A stretch of 64,000 nt of DNA from Segatella oulorum JCM 14966 (lineage in GTDB: Bacteria; Bacteroidota; Bacteroidia; Bacteroidales; Bacteroidaceae). Below, one piece after another: positions 1-6,028 of this stretch (its first letter is position 1; each line of letters starts with the position of its first letter). Under the pieces are notes generated by a model. It was not told the DNA's origin and ran no database searches. It saw nothing but the letters and a program-made list of their open reading frames with translations. A program made the translations under genes and the position numbers. The stretch lies in the NCBI RefSeq assembly GCF_000613785.1, contig NZ_BAJQ01000001.1, positions 1 to 64,000 of the forward strand. Direction: 5' to 3'.

Positions 1-807
1 CTTAATAAAGTATCTTTTTTTGAAACCTTCGTGGTTATCAATCAAATCTATAACATTGTTGTACCTTGAGGTCTCAAATAAAAGGGTAAGATTATTTGGG
101 ATAACATCAGAAATATAATCCTCAATAATTTTTTGGAACATATCCTTAACTATGAGTTCCTCTTCTTTTAATATCTTGAGTCGCTTAATAGCATGACTCT
201 TTGATCTACTTGTCAATTTCAGAAGATCTATGAATTCATTTTCCATTTCCCATGAGATGCTATTGAGTTCAACGATAGAAACGTTCTCATACTCATCTTT
301 ATTATGAATTATATGATTGACAATAGCAAGCAAATGCCGAAACAACTGAGAAGCGTTATAATAAGTAAGCTTCTGAATGCGTTCTAATATATTAGGAAGC
401 TTGTCTTCTATGAATTTCCAGTGATCATAATAGTTCTTTATAATACGGTACGAGTCCGTAAAACGAGAATTGTTCATATAATATGGCTCAAGGAATTTTG
501 ACTCATAGTAAATGACTTTCTTGCCTTTATCGACTTTAACGTCAAGATTCGATTTGCCACCGACCTTCAACGGTGAACTCTTATCCCATTCAAATATGAC
601 AGTTGCTTCTGGATGTAATTTCTCATAAAGAAGAAAGAAATTAACACCTAAAGCGGTTGAAGAGTCAATAAGGTGACATTCTTCAAATGCATTCCCACTT
701 CCATTTTTAAGTTCATCAGAATGTTGTTTAGACAAACTGACTAATAAGTCCACTTTTCGTCTTCCGTTTACACCTATTAACGCTTCCTTTAGAATATTTC
801 TGTCCAT
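1..807 (-). CDS. Putative PD-(D/E)XK nuclease-like protein, C-terminus cut by window edge
   Basis: The minus frame is open from an ATG at 807 to the window edge (269 codons, no stop), so the C-terminus is missing. I do not recognise the family with certainty. Around residues 80-110 there is an aspartate in SNLDVKV followed by a strand ending in YYESKF. This D...ExK arrangement is typical of the PD-(D/E)XK nuclease core, and a similar layout occurs in restriction-endonuclease-like proteins of Porphyromonas. The rest is mainly helical and rich in Lys and Glu. The start lies 6 bases after the stop of the RNase J-like gene, so both are probably on one transcript with the upstream nuclease-like gene. 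The ORF itself is certain; nuclease activity is inference. Confidence 0.6.
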   Translation of the reverse strand, partial: MDRNILKEALIGVNGRRKVDLLVSLSKQHSDELKNGSGNAFEECHLIDSSTALGVNFFLLYEKLHPEATVIFEWDKSSPLKVGGKSNLDVKVDKGKKVIYYESKFLEPYYMNNSRFTDSYRIIKNYYDHWKFIEDKLPNILERIQKLTYYNASQLFRHLLAIVNHIIHNKDEYENVSIVELNSISWEMENEFIDLLKLTSRSKSHAIKRLKILKEEELIVKDMFQKIIEDYISDVIPNNLTLLFETSRYNNVIDLIDNHEGFKKRYFIK

Positions 808-813
808 ATATAC

Positions 814-2070
814 TTATAGTTTAACACCTGCCTCTTTATGAATGCAGATAACCTTCTTTGGTTTGATAGTTTCTATAACCTTCTTTATTGTTGTTTTGTC
901 CGCATGGCCAGAGGTGTGAATGTCCACAACATTGTGGAACAGTTCACGAAACTCCTTGTATTTCGGGTCGGCTTTCACTTGTTCAGGAATCTTGTAATAT
1001 CCATCCCAAGATGAGAATATCAACAAGGTCTCCTCCTGCGGAAGTTTGTCGATAAGGCCTTTGACTCTATCTATTTGTGATGTTCCAACAATCATGGTAA
1101 AGCCTCTGCGCTTCAACTTGCCGTAAAGTCTTTCACTATAGAACAGAGGGGCAAAGGAAAACAAACCTCGCGAGCGTTTTGATTCCCTTTCCGTAAAGAG
1201 TTCCATCGTTCTTTTCATGAACAAGGACCAGATGCACAAAGGCTTCTGTGCGCTTATTGCTGCTCCTTTTATTGCTGCCAGTCGTTCTATATCTGTAGCT
1301 GATGCCAAGACAAAGACATATTTGAATGCCTGCATCACGCTTGCCATCTTCCTTGACACCTCACGTTCATGGATGCATCTGCCCTCACGCTTCAGCATCG
1401 TGCCTTCAGTGATTAGCACGTCGATATTTGTGGCATATTTCTTCAGTGTCGGGAAAAGTCCTTTGCCCAGATAGCCGTGCTCGCGATAGTCTCCTGTGTG
1501 CCAGATACGTTTGCCATCAGCCTCTATAAGAAACATGTAGGAATCATAAATGCTATGACAATTATAGAACGGAGTAACCTTTATGTCGCCTATTGTTATG
1601 GATGCAGGAGCCTTCTTTGCTTCTGCTCGCGTCCATGTTTTAAATTCCCTCACTTCATCTGCATGAGCAACTGCGGATATATATTTCATTTCAAGCATGA
1701 TTTCCTTGTGAAAATCACGTTCTAGCTGCTGGCTGTACAGTTCTTTCTCTTTTTTAATGGCCTCTTCGAGTATCCTGTACTTAATCAGTAGCAGTTCTTT
1801 ACTTCCTTCTCCAATATACTGATCAATAGGGATATACCAGAACAAGCCGACATGATCTTCGTGGGCATGGGTGTAGAACACAGCTGCGTGTTCTTTCATA
1901 TTTTTATCAATAATATCCATGACCATACTAAAGTCTTGCTCTGAAGTTGTTGATTCACCATTACCTGGAAGATTCTGCCCAAAGTCAATGAATACTCGAG
2001 AGGTTTCAGTTGAAATCTCTGTTATGCAGCCGCCAATCTGGTCGAGTCCTCTATGTACCTTGATATTCAT
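814..2070 (-). CDS. RNase J-like metallo-beta-lactamase/beta-CASP hydrolase
   Basis: A metal-dependent hydrolase of the MBL fold with a beta-CASP insert, the class that includes RNase J and CPSF-type nucleases. Visible motifs are an N-terminal GLDQIGG like the GLGEIG of RNase J, the zinc motif THAHEDH at residues 67-73, WHTGDYREHG in the middle, a beta-CASP section with ASATDIERL, and a C-terminal HTSGHAD followed by PKKVICIHKE, matching the HxSGHA and PxHGE motifs of RNase J. At 418 residues it is shorter than housekeeping RNase J (about 550) and lacks its C-terminal domain. It sits between two nuclease-like genes with gaps of 15 and 6 bases, suggesting an accessory cassette rather than general RNA turnover. 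RNA or DNA as substrate is inferred. Confidence 0.8.
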   Translation of the reverse strand: MNIKVHRGLDQIGGCITEISTETSRVFIDFGQNLPGNGESTTSEQDFSMVMDIIDKNMKEHAAVFYTHAHEDHVGLFWYIPIDQYIGEGSKELLLIKYRILEEAIKKEKELYSQQLERDFHKEIMLEMKYISAVAHADEVREFKTWTRAEAKKAPASITIGDIKVTPFYNCHSIYDSYMFLIEADGKRIWHTGDYREHGYLGKGLFPTLKKYATNIDVLITEGTMLKREGRCIHEREVSRKMASVMQAFKYVFVLASATDIERLAAIKGAAISAQKPLCIWSLFMKRTMELFTERESKRSRGLFSFAPLFYSERLYGKLKRRGFTMIVGTSQIDRVKGLIDKLPQEETLLIFSSWDGYYKIPEQVKADPKYKEFRELFHNVVDIHTSGHADKTTIKKVIETIKPKKVICIHKEAGVKL

Positions 2071-2085
2071 AAGAAAATACCTTTA

Positions 2086-3075
2086 TCAAATATGCTCAGT
2101 TTCGTATAAGTTGTCTTCTATAATGTCCGTGATTCTAATATTGGGAAGTGTCTCTTTTGAGAACAAAAATACCGGCGAAAAGGTGGTATCGTTTTCTGTC
2201 AATTTGTAGAAATCGCCCTCGCGCTTAACAAGTGTAGAGATACGTTTGCAGTTCCATCGCTTATCGTCAAACAGATAACCACTCATCGTTTGTTTTGGTG
2301 TAGAGCCGTTAACAGACTGAGAATTATTGTCAAGAGTAATAAAATAGAACTCAGGAGCCATCGAAATGTCATTTTCTGTTAATCCTTCAATTTCCTTAGG
2401 TATTGAAACACCTACCTTTTTCAAGGCTTTCACGATAGAAACAATTTCTTCCTTCAATTCTGTGAAACCAAATTTGTTGGTTCCGTCATTCTTGTGAAAA
2501 GAATAGAAATCTTTTATGTGTGTTCTTACACCTGATTTTCCGCCAATGGCTCCACAGCCATATTTTAATTCTATCAAAGCAATTTTATATGGCTTAGATT
2601 TGCTTATCGCAATTATATCGAAACGCCAATCTTCAGCTTTATCATTTCCTTCGAGTGATTTTGTGTATTCAACATCAATACAAAACCAATTTGATTCCGA
2701 ATTGTTGTTGTTATGCATGAAAAGTTTCTGTTGGGCTTGTTTCTCATATTTATTTCTGTTGTCACTTTGCTCCTTTATCAAAGGATATAGGGAAACAATG
2801 TCGTCCTCAGAGATGTTACTCACACAGCTATCTGTACAATTATTATTCTTACCTATGTAATAATTATTTATAGTTCCTGATATTGTATTTCCATTCTCTA
2901 TTATTTTGGAAATACAATCACAGTTGTAATATAGGCAGATATAACCATCACGAATGCCTATGATAACTTCATCTTCATGTTTGCAATATATTTCAGTGTA
3001 GAACTTGCTTGACTTGAATTTTTCAGCAAAAGTATCTGTAATACCACTGCCTCTACGTGAATCTCTATCTTTCAT
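2086..3075 (-). CDS. Putative PD-(D/E)XK nuclease-like protein
   Basis: 329 residues, no family recognised by name. The central part reads WRFDIIAISK, then about ten residues later IALIELKYG, then GKSGVRTHIKDF. D...ELK is the classic PD-(D/E)XK signature of restriction-type nucleases, with a lysine-containing helix after it. The N-terminal third has several Cys and Asn residues and looks unrelated. It is the second gene of a minus-strand operon: a 63-residue ORF starts upstream with a 9-base gap, and the RNase J-like gene follows after 15 bases. Low GC compared with the housekeeping genes suggests acquisition by transfer. A defence or nucleic-acid processing role is inferred from motifs and neighbours only. 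Confidence 0.6.
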   Translation of the reverse strand: MKDRDSRRGSGITDTFAEKFKSSKFYTEIYCKHEDEVIIGIRDGYICLYYNCDCISKIIENGNTISGTINNYYIGKNNNCTDSCVSNISEDDIVSLYPLIKEQSDNRNKYEKQAQQKLFMHNNNNSESNWFCIDVEYTKSLEGNDKAEDWRFDIIAISKSKPYKIALIELKYGCGAIGGKSGVRTHIKDFYSFHKNDGTNKFGFTELKEEIVSIVKALKKVGVSIPKEIEGLTENDISMAPEFYFITLDNNSQSVNGSTPKQTMSGYLFDDKRWNCKRISTLVKREGDFYKLTENDTTFSPVFLFSKETLPNIRITDIIEDNLYETEHI

Positions 3076-3084
3076 ATTCTTTTA

Positions 3085-3276
3085 CTATATTTGATATTGT
3101 GTTTTATCTATTTTGCAATTAAAGACTACTTCAACATCTTCCTTTATGTCAGTTAAGATCTCATCTATATGTCCTTCAAGAGTTTCATAACCATAGGATT
3201 CTGGATCTTCAATTATGGATTTATAGTCTTCTATAATCGATTGACGTAACTGAAATGCTTTGTTATCTCTTGCCAT
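3085..3276 (-). CDS. Small acidic hypothetical protein
   Basis: 63 residues, rich in Glu, Asp and Ile, predicted mostly helical, no signal peptide or recognised domain. It begins the minus-strand operon and ends 9 bases before the PD-(D/E)XK-like gene. The tight spacing is the main support for it being real. It could be a small regulatory or inhibitory partner of the downstream nuclease, but nothing in the sequence proves that. Confidence 0.5.
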   Translation of the reverse strand: MARDNKAFQLRQSIIEDYKSIIEDPESYGYETLEGHIDEILTDIKEDVEVVFNCKIDKTQYQI

Positions 3277-3330: not shown

Positions 3331-3719
3331 TTATAGTTCAGAAGTATCTGAAGACGCGTCATTTGATGGATTTTCTATCCCGACCTTCTTCATTATAAAC
3401 TGTCTGATCCACCACGTTGCATACGGAATGAACTTTAATCCGTGACATTCATCGAACTTTTCAGTAGCTACGACCATATCTTCGTTTCCAGCTTCAATCA
3501 ACTCATCAAGAGAGAGTCCCTTGCCTGCATATTGCTTGGCTATACTCATCACGATGCGAATGTTGCTCGAGCACAATTTGTGGATAGCTTCTTCGTTGCC
3601 GTCTTTTACCAGATTGACCAAGGAAAGTTCTTCTTCGAGAGAAAAAGAAGCGGTTTCATTTCAACGTTGTTGATGGTTCCTGACTCGTTGCTGCGGATGA
3701 TGATGATGTTCTTGCTCAT
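3331..3719 (-). CDS. Mini sigma-70 factor, region 2 only, with one frameshift
   Basis: The frame ending at 3331 reads as sigma-70 region 2: LVNLVKDGNEEAIHKL, then IRIVMSIAKQYAGKGLSLDE, then FIPYATWWIRQFI, the core-binding and -10-recognition segment of RpoD-type factors. Regions 3 and 4 are absent; the protein stops soon after WWIRQ. The likely start is the ATG at 3719 (MSKNIIII). That frame joins the sigma frame if one A is restored to the AAA run at 3659-3661, giving about 129 residues. As written, only a TTG start at 3621 would open the frame (96 residues). Whether such a short factor directs transcription is unknown. It lies downstream of the WYL regulator, with TGCA palindromes between them. 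Confidence 0.6.
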
Positions 3720-3763
3720 ATTTCAAAATTTTATCGTTTCTATATTATTATACGAATGAGTTT

Positions 3764-3812
3764 TGCAATATTGCACAAAAATCAGCATTTGATATGCAAA
3801 AACACTGCACAC
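3764..3812. promoter_or_regulatory. Palindromic operator-like sites between WYL regulator and mini-sigma gene
   Basis: TGCAATATTGCA at 3764-3775 is a perfect 12-base palindrome, and a looser TATGCA...CTGCACAC element follows at 3793-3812. Both resemble the paired sites upstream of the WYL gene (4777-4860), so they may be bound by that regulator to control the mini-sigma gene. Binding is inferred. Confidence 0.4.
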
Positions 3813-3816
3813 ATCT

Positions 3817-4728
3817 CTATTTTTCTTGTTGATTGTACCGATTTATGGCAGAGTTCAATCGATTTTTGATGTCTTCTCGCAACTCTTTTGGTTCAATGAC
3901 TTCAACCTTTTCACCCATAGCAAGCAGTTGGCTTGTAAGTTCAGGAGTTAAACAAAGGCGATACTGAAAATCGCTATACTGCTCATGCTTACATATAACC
4001 TCCTTTTGTGAGTAATGCAGAGGCAGTGTGCGCATATAATCAACATGTCTGCCGTAAGCACGGACAATAACCTTTTGAGGTTTCAAACTCTCGTTGACGT
4101 ATATACCGACTGTATTGGCATAGTATTCTTGTGCATCAAAGTCTGAAGGTAAAACAAAGGATTCGTCTGAAAGAACCATATCCAAGGTTCTATCAAGGGC
4201 AAGGTTGCGGATGCCATCTTGCTCACGCAGAGACCCTACAATGTACCAACGTTGATGATAAACCTTCATTGCATATGGTTGCAAATGATAGGTGGTTCGA
4301 TGAGCTCCAAATGCCTGATAGTCGATTACCAGTTCCTTGCTCTGTTGCATAGCTTCAATAACAATCTGCAGGTACTCGGTTCCATGAGGGATTTCTTCAA
4401 AGAGAATTCTGTCCTTCATGTTATGGCCAGCCTCAATCGTATTTGATAGAGTAAACGAGTTGAGTAACCACAGATGAGTTCTGTCACTTCGCAGTTTCTC
4501 TGGGGATGCTATATAGTATTTATATGTAGAGGTGTCACACTTTACTTCTACACCAAACAATTCAGTTATGGCATCCCTATGCACATGGAAAGTTCTAAGT
4601 GCAAGAGGACTACCATCACCTATGCAACTTTCTTTCCATTTATTGCTTATTTCTTCAAATGTGAGTCGCTTATATTGTAGCAGCGTATTAAGCAACCAGA
4701 TGTAACGATTAAATGTCTTGCTAATCAT
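3817..4728 (-). CDS. WYL-domain transcriptional regulator
   Basis: 303 residues. The N-terminal about 90 residues form a winged-helix-like DNA-binding part (ISKTFNRYIWLLNTLL, then RTFHVHRDAITELFG). The WYL domain is centred on residues 130-170, where VIDYQAFGAHRTTYHLQPY and QRWYIVGSL match the family pattern. The C-terminal part resembles the WCX extension. WYL proteins sense nucleic-acid or nucleotide ligands and often control phage-defence operons (for example BrxR and CapW). Here it is divergent from the DnaE-like ORFs and next to the nuclease/RNase J-like cassette. Two near-identical 24-base sites in its own leader suggest autoregulation. Confidence 0.85.
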   Translation of the reverse strand: MISKTFNRYIWLLNTLLQYKRLTFEEISNKWKESCIGDGSPLALRTFHVHRDAITELFGVEVKCDTSTYKYYIASPEKLRSDRTHLWLLNSFTLSNTIEAGHNMKDRILFEEIPHGTEYLQIVIEAMQQSKELVIDYQAFGAHRTTYHLQPYAMKVYHQRWYIVGSLREQDGIRNLALDRTLDMVLSDESFVLPSDFDAQEYYANTVGIYVNESLKPQKVIVRAYGRHVDYMRTLPLHYSQKEVICKHEQYSDFQYRLCLTPELTSQLLAMGEKVEVIEPKELREDIKNRLNSAINRYNQQEK

Positions 4729-4776: not shown

Positions 4777-4860
4777 TATGCAAAAGTATTGCATACCTAA
4801 GGAATACACGTAGAATTTTATACCTTTTTTATCAGTTATGCAGCGGTATTGCATAGCTAA
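4777..4860. promoter_or_regulatory. Paired 24-base operator-like repeats in divergent promoter region
   Basis: Two direct copies of TATGCA-NNNN-TATTGCATA-NCTAA lie at 4777-4800 and 4837-4860, exactly 60 bases apart. Each is itself an imperfect palindrome (TATGCA...TGCATA). They sit between the divergent WYL gene and the DnaE-like ORFs and are the natural candidates for the WYL dimer binding sites controlling both directions. Confidence 0.6.
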
Positions 4861-4929: not shown

Positions 4930-5298
4930 ATGACAAAGAAGAAAAAAGATGCCAAAAGGCAGGAAGCACTCGCAAGAAAAAGTGCTGCTCAGTCTCTCGA
5001 CTTTTTAACCATGTGGGGACTGAAACAACTTGGTTATGATGAAGGCAGCATATGGCAGACCTACGCCAAAACTGAGTTGAAATATATCAATGAATTGGGT
5101 CTTACAGAGGATTTACTCATGCTTAAACAGTTTGTTGATAAAGTCAAACATGAACTTGGATGTGGTGTAGTAGTCGGTGTGGGTGATTTTACCCAGAGTG
5201 TTGTCTGTTTAGCATTGGGCATAAGTAAAATTGAAGACTTTGAGAAAGTAGAGATACCCACCAAGACATGGGAAGGCTCATCGCCCAGAAAGTATTAG
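4930..5298 (+). CDS. DnaE-like fragment 1 (degenerate polymerase palm region)
   Basis: 122 residues. After a Lys-rich start, the segment from residue 47 (ELKYINELGL), through LLMLKQFVDKVK, VVVGVGDFTQS and LALGISKIEDF, follows the order and spacing of the DnaE palm: ELxxINxMGF, FLIVxxFIxWAK, VPVGPGRGSGAGS and ALxITDLDPL. The glycine-rich PGRGSGAGS motif is replaced by VGDFTQS, and the catalytic aspartates that should follow are absent, so polymerase activity is not expected. It starts the plus-strand group divergent from the WYL gene. Two further fragments follow in other frames. This is my reading by eye and needs a profile search. Confidence 0.55.
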   Translation: MTKKKKDAKRQEALARKSAAQSLDFLTMWGLKQLGYDEGSIWQTYAKTELKYINELGLTEDLLMLKQFVDKVKHELGCGVVVGVGDFTQSVVCLALGISKIEDFEKVEIPTKTWEGSSPRKY

Positions 5299-5441
5299 CT
5301 ATCTATTATCCTGAGAGTATTCGTAACGAGGTGGTTTCATGGGCTCGTACCAATGGGTTTAATATGTCAACACATCTTGGCCAGCCAATTCTGAAACTTA
5401 ATCATTTATTTATACTTATCAAAAGAGAGAAAGGCGTATGA
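5268..5441 (+). CDS. Small ORF linking the DnaE-like fragments
   Basis: 57 residues from ATG 5268 (MGRLIAQKVLAIYY), overlapping the previous ORF by 31 bases in the -1 frame and ending at TGA 5439-5441, which overlaps the next ATG (ATGA). It could be a separate coupled gene. It could also be the continuation of fragment 1 after a one-base loss, in line with the many single-base deletions in this window. No domain recognised. Confidence 0.45.
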   Translation: MGRLIAQKVLAIYYPESIRNEVVSWARTNGFNMSTHLGQPILKLNHLFILIKREKGV

Positions 5442-5794
5442 GACAGCAAAGAATGACTGAAGAGAAGACGAAACGGCTAATCACATTAGCTCTGCCTCTT
5501 ATAAGCGAATATCCGCTTGATGACGAAGCAACATTTAAGTTGTTTCAAAATGCAGATACGGATGGCATTTTCATGATGGAGAGTGATTGGGATAAGTATG
5601 ACCTAAAGCTGATAAAATCAGCCAATATTGATGAGCTAACAGTTACTTTGGCTCTCAGTCATGGATTGGCACTTAATCCGTATATCTACACATACATTAA
5701 ACTCAACCACATTAAGCCATTTACTTATCCCAGAATGGTAGAGATTCCAGAAATAGCGAGCATCCTGGCAGATACAAGAGGAATGCTGCTATGA
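5438..5794 (+). CDS. DnaE-like fragment 2 (degenerate polymerase fingers region)
   Basis: 118 residues. Residues 26-55 (YPLDDEATFKLFQNADTDG, then IFMMES) match the DnaE stretch IPLDDxKTYELFQxGDTxGIFQFES. The following DELTVTLALS... and EIASILADTRGMLL match FEDLIAMNALYRPGP and ILKETYGIIVY in order, although the basic and proline-rich active-site residues of the RPGP segment are lost. The start overlaps the previous stop as ATGA, suggesting coupled translation. The frame ends at a TGA at 5792-5794, exactly where DnaE has the Tyr of VYQEQ, and homology continues after it. Confidence 0.55.
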   Translation: MRQQRMTEEKTKRLITLALPLISEYPLDDEATFKLFQNADTDGIFMMESDWDKYDLKLIKSANIDELTVTLALSHGLALNPYIYTYIKLNHIKPFTYPRMVEIPEIASILADTRGMLL

Positions 5795-6028
5795 AAAGAA
5801 CAGAAAGAGGACATTCTCAATTACATTGATAGCTTGACGGAAGAGCAACGCAATCAATATCGTATGCCAATACGTGTTATCGTTCATGAGATAGAACTCC
5901 GTGAATACAGTCTTTCTTGTAGAAAGTTCTTCAAAGATAGAGCATTATTGTGCTACAAGAGTGCTTATCTTAAAGTCCATCACAGAGACTATTTCGATTG
6001 GTTCTCCCATTTTCAGCAAGATTTTTGA
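5795..6028 (+). pseudogene. In-frame continuation of DnaE-like fragment 2 after a TGA
   Basis: The same frame stays open for 77 codons after the TGA at 5792-5794. It begins KEQKEDIL, matching QEQVMQIA of DnaE, and ends with RALLCYKSAYLKVHHRDYF, matching YALVAYQTAYLKAHYPAEF. So the ORF at 5438 plus this piece is one homologous unit cut by a single stop. A TTG at 5834 could reinitiate a 64-residue protein. Nonsense mutation, sequence error or readthrough are all possible. Confidence 0.5.

What the first reader, a model, noticed from the sequence alone, without database searches (positions are those of the whole stretch)
1..3276. RNase J-like beta-CASP hydrolase sandwiched between two PD-(D/E)XK-like genes: candidate undescribed defence or RNA-processing cassette
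Three tightly spaced genes (gaps 15 and 6 bases) combine an RNase J-type MBL/beta-CASP enzyme, with HxHxDH and HxSGHA motifs intact, and two unrelated proteins each showing a D...ExK nuclease core. A small acidic ORF leads the operon. A WYL regulator, a type common in phage-defence islands, is next door. I know of no named defence system with this composition.
Basis: partly seen in the sequence, partly recalled or inferred. Interest (0 to 1): 0.72.

Follow-up and report, generated by a model that had tools for sequence, protein, structure and literature searches.

The report
Modular nuclease locus with polymerase fragments
Bacteria of the Prevotella group carry a mobile-looking gene set in which an RNase J-like enzyme sits beside exchangeable nuclease-like proteins, with a regulator that appears to control also dead fragments of the cell's own replication polymerase and small sigma factors; it looks like an undescribed virus-defence system, but no function has been shown.

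Summary
P2 is a confident RNase J-like beta-CASP nuclease (pLDDT 94.6; catalytic residues invariant in 27 sequences). P3 founds a new PD-(D/E)XK-type family (E, D, ExK invariant in 44 sequences; fold supported, not proven). P1 is REase-ARP (PF22558).

The unit is larger than three genes. P3 and P2 are the core: adjacent in 24 of 25 genomes that hold both. P1 is one of several exchangeable nuclease-like families. In relatives an MPPED2-like phosphoesterase follows P1; here the contig ends at P1.

The unexpected part is next door. Short proteins derived from DNA polymerase III alpha (palm, catalytic aspartate pair lost; fingers) and mini-sigma-70 proteins belong to the same system: 30 of 32 palm-fragment loci carry other components, and a palindrome, TATGCA-N7-TGCATA, lies upstream of WYL (28 of 61), palm (26 of 44) and sigma genes (19 of 29) against 11 of 731 other genes. 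In this window these accessory genes are broken.

Best reading: a WYL-controlled, modular multi-nuclease defence locus. Defence, and the role of the mimics, are inferred. No PADLOC match for P1-P4; eight paper searches found no description.

The parts
1..807 (-). P1, 269 aa, REase-ARP family (PF22558); exchangeable second nuclease; only the stop codon is thought to lie off the contig
   Evidence: dN/dS 0.61-0.64, two pairs
814..2070 (-). P2, 418 aa, RNase J-like MBL/beta-CASP nuclease without the RNase J C-terminal domain; core component
   Evidence: dN/dS 0.175, one pair
2086..3075 (-). P3, 329 aa, new PD-(D/E)XK-type family (called NUC in the scripts): N-terminal alpha/beta domain about 13-103, nuclease core about 108-250; core partner of P2
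3085..3276 (-). P4, 63 aa small acidic protein; homologue in L085 (58% over 57 residues), related DNA in L038
3331..3720 (-). remnant of a mini-sigma-70 gene (readable at 3379-3645; N-terminal part out of frame)
   Evidence: family found near 24 of 116 MBL loci
3793..3811 (.). operator-like palindrome TATGCAAAAACACTGCACA upstream of the mini-sigma/nuclease unit
3817..4728 (-). WYL-WCX transcription regulator
   Evidence: WYL within 8 genes in 51 of 116 MBL loci
4777..4795 (.). operator-like palindrome TATGCAAAAGTATTGCATA, between the divergent WYL and palm-fragment genes
4837..4855 (.). second operator-like palindrome TATGCAGCGGTATTGCATA, 60 bp from the first; a similar pair lies in Segatella maculosa L078
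4930..5435 (+). remnant of a DnaE palm-fragment gene (frameshifted here); no member of the family keeps both catalytic aspartates
5438..6028 (+). remnant of a DnaE finger-fragment gene (one in-frame stop here)

Best explanation
A mobile, WYL-controlled anti-invader locus built from several nucleases. Shown by computation: P3 (PD-(D/E)XK type) and P2 (RNase J-like beta-CASP) form a conserved core with intact catalytic residues; P1-type proteins are exchanged, in one case exactly at a gene boundary; an MPPED2-like phosphoesterase follows in relatives; WYL, DnaE-palm and mini-sigma genes share one palindromic motif; the sampled components other than P1 are under purifying selection; the distribution is patchy. 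Inferred: the WYL protein binds that motif and represses the units until an infection-linked ligand releases it; the PD-(D/E)XK proteins cut invader (or host) DNA; the beta-CASP enzyme, RNA type by motif C, degrades transcripts; the phosphoesterase cleans phosphate ends; together they stop phage or plasmid growth. The polymerase and sigma fragments are accessory: in the window they are broken while the nucleases are intact.
For: P2 model and fold; motifs 1-4 and A-C invariant in 27 sequences. P3 motif and fold. P1 family. Reciprocal genome test: P3 profile in 32 of 301 genomes, 25 of them among the 48 with the MBL, 24 of the 25 adjacent. Module swap: 95.1% DNA identity to Segatella maculosa from the P2 start to the end of P1, with a different gene upstream. 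Same chassis with four sequence families in one slot (L182/L183, L196, L197/L200, L198). Operator enrichment. P1 evolves faster than the other sampled components. Annotated restriction or nuclease genes beside distant relatives on 4 of 6 plasmid loci inspected. The WYL repressor CapW binds a palindrome in a defence promoter (abstract read).
Against: No activity of any kind is shown. No methyltransferase was recognised as a recurring part (only representatives of neighbour clusters were scanned), so self/non-self discrimination is unexplained. No PADLOC model matches P1-P4. The flank scan is only suggestive: 65 flank proteins gave strong hits, each by a single protein (among them DpdF, PDC-S01/S02, PDC-S11, PsyrT, AbiEi, AbiLi; first 25 of 83 families shown), but the control was 28 proteins of one genome, which gave a ShosA hit at 2e-59 and weaker PsyrT, BrxH, DpdF and others. 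Foldseek found no significant match for P3. [quoted passage not shown] The motif was found upstream of fewer than half of the WYL genes (28 of 61). P1's dN/dS rests on dS of only 0.07-0.08.
Confidence: 0.6

Rival explanations
1. The DnaE palm/finger fragments and mini-sigma are the sensing or arresting core: mimics of the host replisome and RNA polymerase that either bait phage takeover proteins or, when released, poison host replication and transcription; the nucleases are the executioners.
For: Real DnaE and sigma-70 homology; no fragment keeps both catalytic aspartates; purifying selection; same motif as upstream of WYL; 30 of 32 palm-fragment loci carry other components. Inactive domains as decoys for phage inhibitors have been proposed in BREX-related systems (passage in PMC12839542).
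Against: Found near only 47 of 116 MBL loci; broken in the window while nucleases and WYL are intact; no binding partner known; sequence far from housekeeping DnaE.
Confidence: 0.3
2. A nucleic-acid repair or RNA-processing cassette that matures broken ends, like the ligase-associated MBL plus phosphoesterase set or the Rtc operon, with no role against invaders.
For: Beta-CASP plus MPPED2-like phosphoesterase could be an end-processing pair; RNA-type motif C; WYL proteins are proposed to sense RNAs with cyclic ends (passage).
Against: No ligase, helicase or RtcB model among the hits of the eight window proteins; exchangeable restriction-type proteins and presence in 48 of 301 genomes are not expected of repair.
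Confidence: 0.12
3. A maintenance or competition module of plasmids and integrative elements (addiction, or exclusion of rival elements) rather than a phage defence.
For: Distant relatives on ten plasmid records, all below 60% identity; a relaxase family beside five ORFs of MBL loci (PF01076 in L128; cluster 16).
Against: No constant toxin-antitoxin pair recognised; the broken accessory genes in the window suggest that they are not needed antidotes.
Confidence: 0.13
4. Chance accretion of unrelated genes in a defence island.
For: Neighbourhoods are variable and other defence-type genes lie near some copies.
Against: Reciprocal adjacency 24 of 25; many P3-type and P2 genes overlap by four bases; shared motif.
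Confidence: 0.04

Closest known systems
RNase J / beta-CASP ribonucleases (TIGR00649)
   Same: MBL and beta-CASP domains with all motifs; best PDB matches are RNase J
   Different: 418 aa, no C-terminal domain; 64.8 bits against a cut-off of 400; patchy, and paired with PD-(D/E)XK-type proteins
REase-ARP (PF22558); probably the rapidly evolving REase of ARG/ADP-ribose conflict systems in Iyer et al. 2022, PMC9503650 (passages read; the link is my inference from the Pfam name and the paper's ARPP)
   Same: P1 passes the family's cut-off; WYL regulators and phosphatases also occur in those systems
   Different: No ADP-ribosylglycohydrolase among the window proteins scanned; here it accompanies a beta-CASP enzyme
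Type VII CRISPR-Cas14
   Same: Beta-CASP nuclease (Foldseek E 3.5e-18)
   Different: Far below the Cas14 model cut-off (23.5 against 800); no repeat array found in the window
MZA system (MzaA, sigma-like protein)
   Same: A sigma-70 domain inside a defence system; the mini-sigma hits part of MzaA
   Different: MzaA models are 683-726 positions long; here about 100-300 aa; 76.4 bits against a cut-off of 800
CapW / BrxR WYL repressors
   Same: WYL regulator with a palindromic promoter site (CapW abstract)
   Different: Here binding is not shown, and the gene set includes polymerase and sigma fragments
Ligase-associated exonuclease/PdeM cassette (recalled, TIGR04120-04123)
   Same: MBL enzyme beside a metallophosphoesterase
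   Different: None of those models among the hits of P2 or of the phosphoesterase

Membership tests
MBL/beta-CASP nuclease (P2) | Motifs 1-4 and A-C, bimetal site | tested here: met
   D29, H68/H70/D72/H73, H172, D194, E222, H389, H411 invariant in 27 sequences; assignment of positions to motifs is by eye
RNase J proper (P2) | NCBIfam subfamily cut-off and C-terminal domain | tested here: not met
   64.8 bits against 400; best stretch ends at model position 383 of 546
PD-(D/E)XK superfamily (P3) | Conserved E, D, (D/E)xK | tested here: met
   E111, D134, E136, D153, E169, K171 invariant in 44 sequences; identity of the others to P3 12-25%
PD-(D/E)XK superfamily (P3) | Alpha-beta-beta-beta-alpha-beta nuclease fold | tested here: inconclusive
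   Foldseek: none at E <= 0.001; VIA second look: Upx Z 8.2, HamA 7.2, 2vld repair endonuclease 6.7, VRR_NUC 6.4, SduA 5.9
REase-ARP PF22558 (P1) | Score above the gathering cut-off | tested here: met
   39.9 against 27, residues 49-186
ARG/ADP-ribose conflict system | ADP-ribosylglycohydrolase in the operon | tested here: inconclusive
   None among the 8 window proteins scanned, but the contig ends inside the operon and relatives were scanned only in part
Type VII CRISPR | Cas14 model cut-off and CRISPR array | tested here: not met
   23.5 against 800 bits; a three-copy repeat scan found none in the window and hits in 3 of the 114 unique loci
MZA | MzaA at its cut-off | tested here: not met
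   The sigma remnant scores 76.4 against 800 and matches 70 positions of 726
Ligase-associated cassette | TIGR04122/04123 models | tested here: not met
   Not among the hits of P2 or of the phosphoesterase of L078
DNA polymerase III alpha (palm fragments) | Homology with both catalytic aspartates | tested here: not met
   Homology present. Of 47 fragments aligned, 22 have residues in both columns: 0 keep both aspartates, 4 keep one, 18 neither
Anti-phage defence system | Protection against phage | not testable with these tools
   Needs a plaque assay

The most novel reading that the evidence does not exclude
Bacteria deploy dead pieces of their own replicative polymerase and housekeeping sigma factor as bait or as dominant-negative subunits: a phage that seizes, or a signal that releases, these mimics couples takeover of replication and transcription to a team of exchangeable nucleases under one WYL-controlled operator.
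Probability: 0.3. Interest if true: 0.92.

Novelty: categorically new. Interest (0 to 1): 0.76.

Why it matters
By composition it matched no system in the PADLOC and NCBIfam scans or the eight novelty searches of papers: an RNase J-like enzyme next to (in many relatives overlapping) a new PD-(D/E)XK-type family, a slot where at least four sequence families of nuclease-like proteins interchange, and dead polymerase and sigma fragments that share the regulator's promoter motif. If it is a defence, it gives Prevotella-group bacteria an unlisted multi-nuclease system and a testable case of mimicry of host replication and transcription proteins. The rating 'categorically new' rests on composition; if the function proves to be ordinary restriction it would be a new variant of a known kind.

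Tried and rejected
Fixed three-gene cassette: rejected, because P1 is exchangeable and P3 is replaced by other families in part of the loci. DnaE and sigma ORFs as random pseudogenes: rejected for the families (selection, promoter motif, linkage), although the copies in the window are broken. Antitoxin role for them: made unlikely by their loss beside intact nucleases. CRISPR, MZA and ligase cassettes: see the membership table; ADP-ribose systems: inconclusive. Phage gene: no tblastn match in 50,697 phage records; three distant viral contigs, 23-34% identity. Sequence profile of P3 against PDB: nothing significant; the fourth hit, E 0.17, is the restriction endonuclease 9wuf (Upx), also the top VIA row. 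Pfam scan of the 44 P3 relatives: only scattered weak hits, at most 3 of 44 for one family (HSDR_N, 0.015). PADLOC flank test: inconclusive. Papers: nine searches ran; eight bear on novelty (one search was on motif C) and none listed a paper with this composition; what I saw of most listed papers is the listing only. The library is open-access PubMed Central; subscription papers are missing. PMC8195603 (passages) gave nothing to the point.
Full report
Observation. P1 hits REase-ARP above its cut-off, P2 hits RNase J-type models far below theirs, and P3 and the 63-aa ORF hit nothing of note. The window starts at base 1 of its contig. P1 appears complete except for its stop codon, because homologues of the same 269 aa end identically in L071 and L078, where a calcineurin-like phosphoesterase follows with a four-base overlap; a 278-aa homologue in L056 is followed in the same way (family, MPPED2 as best PDB match). 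That gene is therefore expected just beyond the contig end; it was not seen.

P2. An alignment of 27 sequences (identity of the others to P2 28-74%) keeps every MBL and beta-CASP catalytic position, including a histidine at motif C. That histidine is read as an RNA-type mark (passage in PMC3095777), but the rule is loose (passage in PMC7458816). The AlphaFold2 model has pLDDT 94.6 and pTM 0.92. Its best PDB matches are RNase J chains (E 3.5e-22), followed by CPSF73-type and Cas14 chains. It lacks the RNase J C-terminal domain.

P3. Forty-four sequences, two of them from alphaproteobacterial plasmids, share invariant R42, Y49, Y73, E111, D134, E136, D153, E169 and K171; identity to P3 is 12-25%: a PD-(D/E)XK signature. 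The model has 138 of 329 residues at pLDDT 90 or more and is poor beyond about residue 250 (mean 75.7, pTM 0.78). Foldseek gave no significant match. In the VIA second look the rows covering about residues 108-296 are mostly PD-(D/E)XK enzymes by title and recall (Upx Z 8.2, HamA 7.2, 2vld 6.7, VRR_NUC 6.4, SduA 5.9), while residues 9-112 resemble frataxin/YdhG-type domains. The tool's note says that Z under 8 may mean only a common arrangement. The fold is therefore supported but not proven; the motif carries the claim.

Recurrence. In 301 genomes of the same family, P2 relatives occur in 48 (E <= 1e-20) and P3 relatives in 32 (E <= 1e-6). Twenty-five genomes hold both (Fisher p 2.7e-17), and in 24 of these 25 the two genes lie within 1.5 kb on one contig. 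In a draw of 395 genomes of the phylum 6 had a P2 relative at E <= 1e-40, with at most four candidates scored per genome. A scan of 84,980 species genomes found at least 535 relatives; the 80 kept are nearly all Bacteroidota by title. Among 116 unique P2 loci (114 after removal of duplicates plus L190 and L207), within eight genes: a P3-type partner (any of five families) in 84, WYL in 51, a palm/finger/sigma fragment in 47, one of six second-slot families in 36, the phosphoesterase in 35, and any component in 106. Losses at contig ends were not excluded, genes were called as longest ORFs, and the classes were built from these same neighbourhoods, so the reciprocal genome test is the cleaner one.

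Module exchange. The window and Segatella maculosa share 95.1% DNA identity from the P2 start (base 2069) to the end of P1, but the gene before P2 is another protein there (241 aa, no Pfam hit, D..EAK by eye), and the WYL gene is only 72% identical. Within one genus (g20) the arrangement palm fragment, WYL, X, mini-sigma recurs with X being DUF6946 (L182, L183), REase-ARP (L197, L200), family c9 (L196) or family c14 (L198), with no P2 in the stretches fetched. These four are separate BLAST clusters; distant relationship among them was not tested, and a nuclease motif in DUF6946, c9 and c14 is judged by eye. P1 shows dN/dS 0.61-0.64 (two pairs, dS only 0.07-0.08), whereas P2 is 0.175 and the phosphoesterase 0.148, one pair each.

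Polymerase and sigma fragments. The ORFs right of the WYL gene are homologous to DNA polymerase III alpha: palm fragment (PF07733) and finger fragment (PF17657; 1e-19 in an intact relative), sometimes fused. A palm-fragment profile separates in 301 genomes: 32 loci in short frames (30 of them at E 8e-45 or better; the window's copy 6.6e-32, a remnant in G115 5e-17) and, from 1e-16 down, the housekeeping DnaE, mostly in frames of about 1,240 aa. Of 47 fragments aligned to DnaE, 22 have residues in both catalytic columns: none keeps both aspartates, four keep one and 18 neither; the other 25 have a gap in one or both columns. Of the 32 loci 30 have at least one other component next to them; the exceptions are the remnant in L189 and a 4.6-kb contig, L208. 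The mini-sigma family includes forms of about 106-121 aa and 190 aa (regions 1.2, 2 and 4 in L038) and, by length, almost complete sigma-70 proteins of 288-305 aa. dN/dS: palm 0.06-0.16 (three pairs; a fourth had no synonymous change), finger 0.05 and 0.10, fused palm-finger 0.19, sigma 0.06-0.23 (four pairs), P3 family 0.09 and 0.18. In the window, the sigma and palm genes are frameshifted and the finger gene has an in-frame stop, while P1-P4 and WYL read through; sequencing error cannot be excluded for a draft genome.

Operator. The palindrome TATGCA-N7-TGCATA occurs twice, 60 bp apart, between WYL and the palm gene, and once, weaker, before the sigma remnant. In the whole window an earlier, slightly different pattern gave 9 matches against 3.95 expected; 3 of 100 shuffles reached 9, so the window alone is weak evidence. 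A similar pair about 60 bp apart is in S. maculosa. In 50 loci with WYL the motif occurs 41 times in 13.7 kb upstream of WYL against 78 times in 665 kb elsewhere; 26 of the 50 loci have at least one upstream copy. By gene class, 200 bp upstream, up to two mismatches: WYL 28 of 61, palm 26 of 44, sigma 19 of 29, P3 family 2 of 69, P2 0 of 108, phosphoesterase 0 of 37, other genes 11 of 731. WYL and palm share one intergenic region in divergent loci, so these two counts overlap, and the loci are related; the sigma count is separate. Palm and sigma genes thus seem to head transcription units of the same regulon; that WYL binds the motif is inferred. CapW, a WYL repressor of CBASS, works on a palindrome (abstract).

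Interpretation. The most likely system is a mobile multi-nuclease anti-invader locus. The P3-P2 core, exchangeable restriction-type proteins, WYL linkage, patchy presence, distant relatives on plasmids and annotated restriction or nuclease neighbours on 4 of 6 inspected plasmids point that way. The substrates and the order of action are inferred. The role of the polymerase and sigma fragments is open; mimicry of host machines, as bait or as dominant-negative subunits, is the boldest reading that the data allow, and inactive domains as decoys have been proposed elsewhere (passage in PMC12839542). Against it: many loci lack them and the copies in the window are broken.

Literature. Iyer et al. 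2022 (PMC9503650, passages read) describe a rapidly evolving REase with WYL regulators and phosphatases in predicted ADP-ribose conflict systems; that this is PF22558 is my inference from the names. It is the nearest published context found. Nothing with this composition was listed (searches named under Tried and rejected).

Noticed in passing
window 3331-3720, 4930-5435, 5438-6028: Mini-sigma, DnaE-palm and DnaE-finger genes are all broken in this genome while the nuclease and WYL genes are intact.
   Followed up: yes
L100 679-5038: The locus sits directly beside a full-length dnaE gene (1235 aa), with the palm fragment on the same strand.
   Followed up: no
L078 3935-5356 and 11063-12511: Flanked by a relaxase-like and a tyrosine-recombinase-like protein (judged by eye); a relaxase family, PF01076, was confirmed only in L128.
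   Followed up: partly
window 2086-3075, P3 residues 9-112: N-terminal domain of P3 resembles frataxin/YdhG/YjbR-type folds (VIA Z 5-6.5), function unknown.
   Followed up: no
L033 6089-9173: A Butyrivibrio plasmid carries WYL, a protein with D..ELK (by eye) and a beta-CASP enzyme in the same order, suggesting spread beyond Bacteroidota.
   Followed up: partly
L051, L053, L074, L075, L126, L131, L135, L147: A family of about 570 aa recurs near the locus (nine ORFs in eight loci); its member in L074 is an AAA ATPase (PF00004).
   Followed up: no
L038 8287-8616 and L081 7656-7985: A 109-aa protein lies between the P3-type gene and P2 in two loci.
   Followed up: no
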